From positions 18,199-82,198 of the forward strand of contig PNLU01000002.1 in assembly GCA_013823245.1 (NCBI GenBank): DNA of 64,000 nt. Direction: 5' to 3'. Position numbers and translations under genes: made by a program. The notes under the pieces were generated by a model. It saw only the letters and a list, made by a program, of their open reading frames with translations, was not told the origin of the DNA and did no database searches. How positions within the stretch are numbered: position 1 is the stretch's first letter; each line of letters starts with the position of its first letter. Shown piece after piece: positions 42,121 to 44,296 of this stretch. This DNA comes from Alcanivorax sp. (lineage in GTDB: Bacteria; Pseudomonadota; Gammaproteobacteria; Pseudomonadales; Alcanivoracaceae).

Positions 42121-42641
42121 CCGGATATCGCCTCGGCATGCAAACGCAGCACCAGCCGCGCCACACGCGTGACGGCATCCACCGACAGGGTTGCGCCCGT
42201 AATGTTGTCGATGGGCCGGTCCAGGCGATTGCCATTGGCCAGCACCGCACCCTCGAACTGGCGGGTGAAAAAGCGCTCATGCACTTCGCCGCCGCGCGGC
42301 TCACGGTAAACCAGAATGCGTACTTTCTCGATGCCTTCAGGCCCGACAACAAACCCCATAGTGATCGGGTACTCCTTGCCGATTTCTTCCATGATCCAGG
42401 CGGTCCGATCTCCAGCCCGCCAGTAGCGCTGGCGCGCCACACTGACGCGCCGCTCCATGATCTGTGCGGCCTCATCACGCAGCACGGCGTTCATCATGAT
42501 GAACTGCAATTGCGGGGTCTGTTCCGGGAACGCCAGCACCAGAAACTCATCCTGCGTCAGGTAACGGATATGAGTGCCGTGTGCGCTGGCCATCGGCGCC
42601 AGCATGCACAGCAACCACCCCACCACAACCGGTTTCCACAT
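42117..42641 (-). CDS. Secreted FMN-binding domain protein with covalent flavinylation-like motif
   Basis: Signal peptide-like N-terminus; VVGPEGIEKVRILVYREPRGGEV and DNITGATLS, matching the D-x-x-[ST]-G-A-T motif of NqrC/RnfG-type FMN-binding domains. Confidence 0.85.
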   Translation of the reverse strand: MWKPVVVGWLLCMLAPMASAHGTHIRYLTQDEFLVLAFPEQTPQLQFIMMNAVLRDEAAQIMERRVSVARQRYWRAGDRTAWIMEEIGKEYPITMGFVVGPEGIEKVRILVYREPRGGEVHERFFTRQFEGAVLANGNRLDRPIDNITGATLSVDAVTRVARLVLRLHAEAISG

Positions 42642-44296
42642 CAGTTCACCAGCCTTTCCTGATCCATCAGGGTACGAATCAGCCAGCGCTGGTAGGGCCC
42701 GACACGCTTCCCCTCCAGGCGGGCATGCGCTTCATGATGGAAAGGGTGATGCTCGACACGCGCGGGCAATACCCAGGACGCAAGCCGCGCACTGTTCCGG
42801 ATCCAGAAGTAGTTCATACGCTGCCAGGCGCCATAGTTCATCTCGTACTGATCACGCACTTCCGGCGGCAGATTGGCTGCGGTGGAAATCTTCTGTACCC
42901 ACATAGGAAAAATCAGCAATACGGATTGAGGCTTGAACAGATCGTCACGCAGCTGAACCGTCGCATCGGTCACCGTAAGCTGGGGACTCGCCCACATGGC
43001 TTCGTTGTAGGCGATAAATTCGTTCCAGTCCTGTGGCAGTGCATCCTCGGGAATGCCGAACAGCATCGCGAACAGTTTGGTTTCCTGATAGAACTGCTCT
43101 TTCTGCTCGTCCGTGAGCTTGCCCTTGAGCTGCTCATACATCATCGCCAGGGTTTCCCACAGGGTGGCGTGCACCCAGATCATGGCGTTGACTTCGTTGG
43201 CGCGATATTCGGTGCCGCGCTTGAAGGCGCCTGCGTCGTAGTCCATTTCGCCTTCGATCGCTTCGTGGATGGCGTGCACCTGATTGGCCGATCGCATCAC
43301 CTGCGGCATGCTGCCATAGGTCATGGTGAACACATGCTGGAACGTGCGCCGCGCGCGTCCCAGTGCATCCTCGCGCACTACCGAATGCTCGTCGATCCCC
43401 TGCGTGATCCAGGGATGGGCGTTCTGCAACAACAATGCCCGTCCGGCACCAAAGCCGCCCGGCGCCATCGGTCCCTGAAGTTTCCACATCATCGAGTCAG
43501 GACCGAACAGGCCAACACGGCCGTCCGGGATGCGGCCATGCACCCGATACAACTGCTCGCAGAACGCATCCCGGTCCACCCAGCGCGCCATCGGTGCAGA
43601 GCCATCTTCCGGCACCAGTTCGCGCACCCGGTCACGACCCGCGTCACGTCTTTGCGTGGTGCCGTTTACCGCCACTGCCCGTTCACCCTCCGGACGAAAA
43701 TCCCGGGGGCATGGCCCGGAAAGATAGCCGGTCTCCGCGCGCACCATCTCCAGATCAAGCCGTGTGCCGTTGCGTGTCAGGCGCATACGCTCTGGCAACC
43801 GGTAGTCGTGCACGCGCATATGATCGCGATAATGGATCTCCCAGTCATCGTCAGTCACGCGTGCAAGCTGCCCGGCCCTGGCATATTCCATGTTCGCTTC
43901 CGGTGTCGCCGGCAGACCGCGCAGCCAGAACGCAAAATGTTGCAGTGGCAAGCTATCGCGAAGCTGGCGTGCCAATGCGGCGGCCTGATGATCCCGCGCG
44001 CGCAGGTCTGGCGCGTCGTCAAACAGGTCTGCGGCGCTGAGCACCACATCCGGCTCACCGACCGGGTCTTTCAGCATCAGCGCCAGGCTGTAACCGCCCT
44101 CTACCTGGGTGTAACGAAACCAGGCGCGCTCGCGCCCCTGGTCGCCACGCCAGTCAAGACGGCCTTCGATCTGCCATTCCTCAAGATGCTCGGCATCGGC
44201 CGCTTCAAAGTCCATGACGCGGGTCGAACTGCACCCTGCCAACATGCCCAGCAGAGCCATCAGACAGAGCACCTTTTTCCCGATTATTATTTTCAT
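42641..44296 (-). CDS. LolB-like lipoprotein domain fused to DUF2236/MpaB-type oxygenase
   Basis: Lipobox LAGC-SS; aa ~41-187 WQIEGRLDWRG...YSLALMLKDPVGEPDVVL...LPLQHFAFWLRGLP...GQLARVTDDDWEIHYRDHMRVHDYRLPERMRLTRNGTRLDLEMVR is LolB-like. C-terminal GRALLLQNAHPWITQGIDEHSVVREDALGRARRTFQHVFTMTYGS...YRANEVNAMIWVHATLWETLAMMYE is DUF2236-like. Single uninterrupted ORF. Confidence 0.85.
   Translation of the reverse strand: MKIIIGKKVLCLMALLGMLAGCSSTRVMDFEAADAEHLEEWQIEGRLDWRGDQGRERAWFRYTQVEGGYSLALMLKDPVGEPDVVLSAADLFDDAPDLRARDHQAAALARQLRDSLPLQHFAFWLRGLPATPEANMEYARAGQLARVTDDDWEIHYRDHMRVHDYRLPERMRLTRNGTRLDLEMVRAETGYLSGPCPRDFRPEGERAVAVNGTTQRRDAGRDRVRELVPEDGSAPMARWVDRDAFCEQLYRVHGRIPDGRVGLFGPDSMMWKLQGPMAPGGFGAGRALLLQNAHPWITQGIDEHSVVREDALGRARRTFQHVFTMTYGSMPQVMRSANQVHAIHEAIEGEMDYDAGAFKRGTEYRANEVNAMIWVHATLWETLAMMYEQLKGKLTDEQKEQFYQETKLFAMLFGIPEDALPQDWNEFIAYNEAMWASPQLTVTDATVQLRDDLFKPQSVLLIFPMWVQKISTAANLPPEVRDQYEMNYGAWQRMNYFWIRNSARLASWVLPARVEHHPFHHEAHARLEGKRVGPYQRWLIRTLMDQERLVN

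What the first reader, a model, noticed from the sequence alone, without database searches (positions are those of the whole stretch)
42641..44296. LolB-like lipoprotein domain fused to a DUF2236/MpaB-type oxygenase
Seen: one uninterrupted 551-aa ORF with a lipobox (LAGC, Ser at +2, no Asp), a LolB-like region at aa ~41-187, and a DUF2236-type C-terminus with its characteristic QNAHP...EHS...GRARRT and WVHAT signatures. Established: LolB is the outer-membrane acceptor of lipoproteins, and DUF2236 includes heme oxygenases such as latex-clearing protein and MpaB. Inference: the fusion would place an oxygenase at the periplasmic face of the outer membrane with a hydrophobic-ligand-binding domain to feed it. 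I do not know of a described LolB-oxygenase fusion, but could not search for one.
Basis: partly seen in the sequence, partly recalled or inferred. Interest (0 to 1): 0.8.

Follow-up and report, generated by a model that had tools for sequence, protein, structure and literature searches.

The report
Outer-membrane LolB–heme oxygenase fusion operon
Marine oil-degrading bacteria and relatives carry a protein that joins a lipid-handling outer-membrane domain (LolB type) to a rubber-oxygenase-type heme enzyme, encoded beside a probable flavin/heme electron-supply pair, so it is probably an outer-membrane-tethered enzyme that oxidises greasy molecules.

Summary
The 551-aa ORF lies on the minus strand at 44296..42641. 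It has a LAGC lipobox (+2 Ser), a LolB domain (PF03550, aa 40-183, E=2e-17) and an MpaB/Lcp domain (PF09995, aa 278-506, E=4.5e-49). It is not an assembly artefact: more than 100 homologues on separate contigs carry both domains. Every fusion-bearing genome tested also has a canonical lolB. Fused LolB domains form their own clade.
FMN_bind, with an ApbE flavinylation motif, directly follows the fusion in 22 of 24 genomes, mostly with overlapping codons. LolB-less exported DUF2236 relatives also sit beside FMN_bind. The enzyme domain folds like the C=C-cleaving t-anethole oxygenase and Lcp. R314, T318 and H344, the equivalents of Lcp R164/T168/H198, are invariant in 88 fusions.
Best reading: an outer-membrane-tethered heme oxygenase. 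LolB captures a hydrophobic substrate, the FMN_bind/PepSY pair reduces the heme, and the ligase activates the products. Substrate and chemistry are untested. I found no paper on it. New variant of a known kind.

The parts
42641..44296 (-). LolB-MpaB (DUF2236) fusion lipoprotein gene, 551 aa
44231..44296 (-). signal peptide and lipobox LAGC (aa 1-22), Ser at +2
   Evidence: C22 in 86 of 88 homologues
43748..44179 (-). LolB domain (aa 40-183)
   Evidence: PF03550 E=2e-17; Foldseek to 8cm1 E=1.9e-8, 1iwm 8.9e-7
42779..43465 (-). MpaB/Lcp catalytic domain (aa 278-506)
   Evidence: PF09995 E=4.5e-49; Foldseek to t-anethole oxygenase 8s1j and Lcp 5o1l
43265..43357 (-). putative heme site: R314, T318, H344 (Lcp R164/T168/H198 equivalents)
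   Evidence: invariant in 88 fusions
42117..42641 (-). exported FMN_bind protein, 174 aa, signal peptide; start overlaps the fusion stop (TGATG)
   Evidence: PF04205 22.6 bits, cut-off 22; junction; directly adjacent in 22 of 24 genomes
42189..42209 (-). flavinylation motif DNITGAT in the FMN_bind protein
41377..42120 (-). PepSY_TM membrane protein, 247 aa; conserved WHR and LHSGR histidines; ATGA overlap with FMN_bind
   Evidence: PF03929 E=5e-12; alignment
44314..46038 (-). AMP-forming acyl-CoA ligase (start set at the ATG 1 nt after the MpaB stop)
   Evidence: PF00501 E=2.5e-88; junction
46040..46972 (-). stand-alone cytosolic MpaB/DUF2236 protein, 310 aa
   Evidence: PF09995 E=4.6e-59
47090..47851 (-). 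TetR-family regulator (start codon uncertain)
   Evidence: PF00440 E=5e-18

Best explanation
The protein is an outer-membrane lipoprotein facing the periplasm. Its LolB-fold domain holds or hands over a hydrophobic, probably unsaturated, long-chain or isoprenoid-like molecule at the inner leaflet of the outer membrane. Its C-terminal MpaB/Lcp-type b-heme domain oxidises that molecule with O2, probably by C=C cleavage as in Lcp and t-anethole oxygenase. The exported, probably flavinylated FMN_bind protein, with a PepSY heme membrane protein where present, supplies electrons to bring or keep the heme in the ferrous state. Carboxylated products are taken in and activated by the acyl-CoA ligase; the cytosolic MpaB may act on a related or shortened substrate. 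The TetR protein controls the operon. Shown here: domains, signal, conserved residues, folds, operon, distribution. Inferred: heme content, ligand, reaction, direction of electron flow, product fate.
For: Domains and signal. Whole-chain model pLDDT 90, pTM 0.88, matching LolB. Domain model pLDDT 94, matching t-anethole oxygenase 8s1j (TM 0.60/0.64) and Lcp 5o1l. R/T/H heme-site triad invariant in 88; these residues are essential or near-essential in Lcp (PMC5522427, PMC6311187). FMN_bind directly downstream in 22 of 24 genomes, flavinylation motif and export signal conserved; ApbE present in the genome. PepSY clusters are a known transmembrane donor type for flavinylated proteins (PMC8238504, PMC11334425). 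LolB-less exported DUF2236 relatives also pair with FMN_bind, so the redox partner goes with the exported enzyme rather than with LolB. Acyl-CoA ligase in the operon, and FadL-type, OmpW, YdbH-like or lipase genes nearby in some relatives, point to lipid or hydrocarbon handling. Canonical lolB always kept, so the fused copy is free for another task.
Against: No heme, ligand or activity data. Lcp-type dioxygenases need no steady outside electron supply (general knowledge), so the FMN_bind/PepSY link could instead mean a different chemistry. PepSY is not next door in most Alcanivorax-type genomes, though a second FMN_bind-PepSY cassette exists in several of them. The Lcp distal ligand K167 is mostly Arg here (R317, 81 of 88). 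Foldseek E-values for the enzyme domain are modest (2.5e-3) and no sequence-profile match to Lcp covers the heme site. Neighbouring transport and lipase genes vary between genomes.
Confidence: 0.5

Rival explanations
1. The LolB-like domain is only a structural outer-membrane adaptor (tether, spacer, or docking site for the FMN_bind partner); the enzyme works as an outer-membrane-anchored MpaB oxygenase and takes its substrate directly from the membrane.
For: The LolB domain evolves much faster than the enzyme domain (long branches); 20 of 88 lack the PVG tip of the protruding loop; LolB-less exported relatives keep the FMN_bind link without it.
Against: The LolB fold, W124 (invariant), W152 (90% or more) and a mostly hydrophobic loop tip (P78 V79 G80 in about 68 of 88) are kept; a lipobox alone would do as a tether.
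Confidence: 0.25
2. The heme domain is not an oxygenase but a redox relay or protective enzyme (lipid-peroxide or ROS handling, iron or quinone reduction) fed by FMN_bind/PepSY.
For: PepSY-flavinylation clusters are linked to iron reduction (PMC8238504); paralogous FMN_bind-PepSY cassettes in this family sit between a porin, a monothiol-glutaredoxin-like gene and a peroxiredoxin.
Against: The oxygenase-type R/T/H triad is invariant; the fold matches C=C-cleaving enzymes; an acyl-CoA ligase and a second MpaB are in the same operon.
Confidence: 0.13
3. It is a second LolB that inserts lipoproteins in the outer membrane, with a fused accessory domain.
For: PF03550 above cut-off, kept loop, database name 'lipoprotein insertase'.
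Against: Below the TIGR00548 equivalog cut-off; canonical lolB in all 24 fusion-bearing relatives tested and in this genome; separate clade; co-operonic with oxidation genes.
Confidence: 0.05
4. Assembly or gene-calling artefact joining two genes.
For: The source is a 196-contig assembly.
Against: Fusion in 20 of 47 family genomes and in a second family, over 100 homologues.
Confidence: 0.01

Closest known systems
LolB (PF03550, TIGR00548)
   Same: Lipoprotein signal, LolB fold, W124/W152 and a hydrophobic protruding loop (V79 at the L68 position)
   Different: Fused to an enzyme, separate clade, below the equivalog cut-off, coexists with canonical lolB beside ispE
t-anethole oxygenase of Stenotrophomonas maltophilia (PDB 8s1j) and other bacterial MpaB-family C=C-cleaving oxygenases
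   Same: Fold (TM 0.60/0.64)
   Different: 14% identity; this one is exported, outer-membrane-anchored and carries LolB
Latex clearing protein Lcp (5o1l/5o1m)
   Same: Fold (TM 0.51/0.45); R164/T168/H198 equivalents R314/T318/H344 invariant; also extracytoplasmic
   Different: Distal K167 position mostly Arg; Gram-negative periplasmic face instead of secretion; flavin/PepSY partners
Nro1, membrane-bound nitrile rubber oxygenase of the MpaB family (PMC12724181)
   Same: MpaB family, membrane-associated, attacks hydrophobic C=C
   Different: About 320 aa by the paper, no LolB domain reported, Gordonia
PepSY-type flavinylated electron-transfer clusters (PMC8238504)
   Same: Exported protein with an ApbE motif plus PepSY_TM
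   Different: No oxygenase partner is mentioned in the main text of that survey (no MpaB, DUF2236, oxygenase or LolB); ApbE is not in the cluster here

Membership tests
LolB lipoprotein insertase | PF03550 match over curated cut-off | tested here: met
   64.1 bits against 23.7
LolB lipoprotein insertase | TIGR00548 equivalog cut-off | tested here: not met
   51.2 against 59.6 bits
LolB lipoprotein insertase | lipobox, no Asp at +2 | tested here: met
LolB lipoprotein insertase | hydrophobic residue at the tip of the protruding loop (E. coli L68; PMC11885536) | tested here: met
   V79 in the window protein; V in 67 and I in 6 of 88; alignment to 1iwm
LolB lipoprotein insertase | the genome's LolB at the lolB-ispE locus | tested here: not met
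   the canonical copy is elsewhere
LolB lipoprotein insertase | inserts lipoproteins in the outer membrane | not testable with these tools
   needs complementation
MpaB/Lcp heme oxygenase (PF09995) | Pfam catalytic domain | tested here: met
   168 bits, E=4.5e-49
MpaB/Lcp heme oxygenase (PF09995) | R/T/H heme-site triad | tested here: met
   R314, T318, H344 invariant in 88; H344 assigned by motif and spacing, not by a direct Lcp alignment
MpaB/Lcp heme oxygenase (PF09995) | Lcp / t-anethole oxygenase fold | tested here: met
   prob 1.00, TM 0.45-0.64 for 8s1j and 5o1l
MpaB/Lcp heme oxygenase (PF09995) | b-type heme and O2-dependent C=C cleavage | not testable with these tools
   needs spectroscopy and assay
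PepSY-type flavinylated electron-transfer system | exported FMN_bind protein with the DxxTGAT motif | tested here: met
PepSY-type flavinylated electron-transfer system | PepSY_TM protein in the cluster | tested here: met
   PF03929 E=5e-12 in the window; adjacent in genus g1, in f195 loci L088-L090, L093, L094 and in L056, absent in most Alcanivorax-type loci
PepSY-type flavinylated electron-transfer system | ApbE in the genome | tested here: met
   one copy, unlinked

The most novel reading that the evidence does not exclude
A LolB lipid carrier has been recruited as the substrate-delivery half of an outer-membrane heme oxygenase that receives electrons across the periplasm from a flavinylated FMN_bind/PepSY relay: an undescribed system for O2 chemistry on lipids or hydrocarbons at the inner face of the outer membrane.
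Probability: 0.35. Interest if true: 0.75.

Novelty: new variant of a known kind. Interest (0 to 1): 0.56.

Why it matters
If true, oxygenation of hydrophobic compounds would begin at the outer membrane of hydrocarbon-associated Gram-negative bacteria rather than in the cytosol; LolB-fold domains would have a role beyond lipoprotein sorting; and MpaB/Lcp oxygenases would have a dedicated extracytosolic electron supply. It also exposes a naming error: several of these enzymes are called 'lipoprotein insertase LolB' in public records, although each tested genome has a true LolB elsewhere.

Tried and rejected
(1) Artefact: rejected by recurrence in many genomes. (2) Fusion as the genome's only LolB: rejected. 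(3) Direct sequence alignment of the heme site to Lcp: profile searches of the PDB reach Lcp only weakly (E=0.02-0.4) and only C-terminal to the heme site, so the triad was assigned from motif, spacing and invariance. (5) First LolB tree held a wrongly called ORF (can_L119) and was rebuilt without it. (6) Papers on LolB+DUF2236, MpaB+Alcanivorax and anethole oxygenase: none held. (7) Class-wide search with E<=1e-40 found only this genome among 370, so the distribution was taken from order and family searches. (8) The split LolB/MpaB frames in L028/L098 were judged a frameshift, since the break lies inside the LolB domain.

Full report
OBSERVATION. The ORF at 42641-44296 is real, on the minus strand, 551 aa. 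Pfam finds LolB (PF03550, aa 40-183, E=2e-17) and MPAB_Lcp_cat (PF09995, aa 278-506, E=4.5e-49), both far above their cut-offs. The NCBI equivalog model for true LolB matches below its cut-off (51.2 against 59.6 bits). The lipobox is LAGC-S. A five-billion-protein search gave 226 relatives; more than 100 carry both domains, mostly at full length, 38-98% identical, on independent contigs. Artefact is excluded.

CONSERVATION. In 88 full-length fusions (A1) R314, R316, T318, H344, H294, H304 and C196 are invariant; C22 (lipobox) and C246 are at 90% or more. +2 after the lipid cysteine is never Asp, in line with outer-membrane sorting (general knowledge of the Lol rule). Lcp work names R164, T168 and H198 as heme-site residues (PMC5522427, PMC6311187). 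R314/T318 have the same R-x3-T spacing, and H344 is the invariant histidine at the best-fitting place; it is also invariant in 13 diverse LolB-less relatives. The Lcp distal ligand K167 falls on R317 (81 of 88 Arg). The invariant C196 in the linker and C246 in the enzyme part could form a disulfide (inference). In the LolB part W124 is invariant, W152 at least 90%, and the protruding loop keeps P-V-G in about 68 of 88; the tip matches E. coli L68, which matters for insertion (PMC11885536).

STRUCTURE. The whole-chain model has pLDDT 90 and pTM 0.88, with one disordered linker at 206-217; its best PDB matches are LolB structures (8cm1 E=1.9e-8). The enzyme part modelled alone has pLDDT 94, and its only confident matches are t-anethole oxygenase of Stenotrophomonas maltophilia (8s1j, TM 0.60/0.64) and Lcp (5o1l, TM 0.51/0.45). 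A class of bacterial heme C=C-cleaving oxygenases was reported by Purwani et al. 2024 (cited in PMC12724181; the original paper was not available to me, and its link to entry 8s1j is my inference). The same citing paper reports a membrane-bound MpaB-family nitrile-rubber oxygenase, Nro1.

OPERON. On the minus strand: TetR (47851-47090), cytosolic MpaB (46972-46040), acyl-CoA ligase (46038-44314), the fusion (44296-42641), FMN_bind (42641-42117), PepSY_TM (42120-41377). Junctions: 1-nt gap, 17-nt gap, TGATG overlap, ATGA overlap. FMN_bind has a signal peptide and DNITGAT, which fits the ApbE flavinylation motif; ApbE is encoded once, elsewhere. PepSY_TM keeps the WHR-type and LHSGR histidines in its homologues. 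At least one fusion copy is followed by FMN_bind at -26 to +4 nt in 22 of 24 genomes; the exceptions are G027 (cluster partly lost) and G781 (fusion frame broken, FMN_bind still present). TetR, cytosolic MpaB and ligase are kept in most but not all loci; genus g332 loci (L089, L091, L092) have other exported proteins upstream. PepSY follows in genus g1, in L056 and in f195 loci L088, L089, L090, L093 and L094, not in most g8 loci.

ORIGIN AND DISTRIBUTION. Fusions occur in 4 of 7 genomes of the genus (this one included), 16 of 18 of genus g8 (two of these broken or partial), none of the other six genera of the family, and in genera g332, g366 and g376 of family f195. One of 370 sampled genomes of the class (this one) had it. 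Fused LolB domains form a clade apart from the canonical LolBs of the same genomes (100/100), and fused enzyme domains form a clade (97/90) next to exported LolB-less DUF2236 proteins. Of the five loci of the latter, four (L030, L032, L034, L099) also have FMN_bind directly downstream; L036 has a cytochrome-b561-like gene instead. The simplest reading is that an exported, FMN_bind-partnered oxygenase gained a LolB domain once (inference; loss of LolB is not excluded). All 24 fusion-bearing relatives tested also have canonical lolB; here it lies next to ispE.

A SECOND CASSETTE. Several Alcanivoracaceae carry a paralogous FMN_bind-PepSY pair between a porin (PF07396), a monothiol-glutaredoxin-like gene and a peroxiredoxin, also in genomes without the fusion. 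The FMN_bind proteins of the two settings form separate clades (100/100). So the pair looks like a general periplasmic redox module with one branch dedicated to the oxygenase.

MECHANISM. Best reading (0.5): outer-membrane-anchored heme oxygenase for a hydrophobic, probably unsaturated substrate; LolB captures or passes the substrate; FMN_bind/PepSY reduces the heme; products go to the acyl-CoA ligase. FadL-type, OmpW, YdbH-like, lipase and RoxA-like genes near some relatives fit lipid or hydrocarbon uptake but vary. Not shown: heme, ligand, reaction, electron flow.

NOVELTY. No held paper joins LolB and DUF2236, and the 2021 and 2024 flavinylation papers do not mention MpaB, DUF2236 or LolB in their main text. 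Both halves and the redox module are known kinds; their combination appears undescribed, although the two-domain proteins sit in databases under either half's name. Subscription papers could not be searched.

Noticed in passing
window 37340-41375 (+): Three consecutive secreted-looking proteins, two with weak to moderate DUF6160 matches, converge on the operon; conserved next door in three genus members (L045-L047).
   Followed up: partly
window 47754-49982 (+): Molybdopterin oxidoreductase divergent from the TetR gene; conserved next door in L045-L047 and nearby in L088.
   Followed up: partly
L096 and L097 (genomes G778, G782): Two tandem fusion copies in the order MpaB, fusion, FMN_bind, ligase, fusion; only the first copy has FMN_bind behind it.
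   Followed up: partly
L054:13309-15630: Predicted lipoprotein with a RoxA-like cytochrome-c motif (PF21419) near the fusion in one genome.
   Followed up: no
L131, L134 and six similar loci (L130-L137): Paralogous FMN_bind-PepSY pair behind a Porin_O_P-type porin and a monothiol-glutaredoxin-like gene, before a peroxiredoxin: a possible periplasmic reduction module.
   Followed up: partly
L089, L091, L092: In genus g332 the fusion follows three exported proteins, including a lipoprotein with a laminin-G-like domain and a twin-arginine-type protein without a Pfam match.
   Followed up: no
public records P0056, P0062, P0082, P0089, P0103: Fusions named 'lipoprotein insertase outer membrane protein LolB' in public databases, likely a mis-annotation.
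   Followed up: yes
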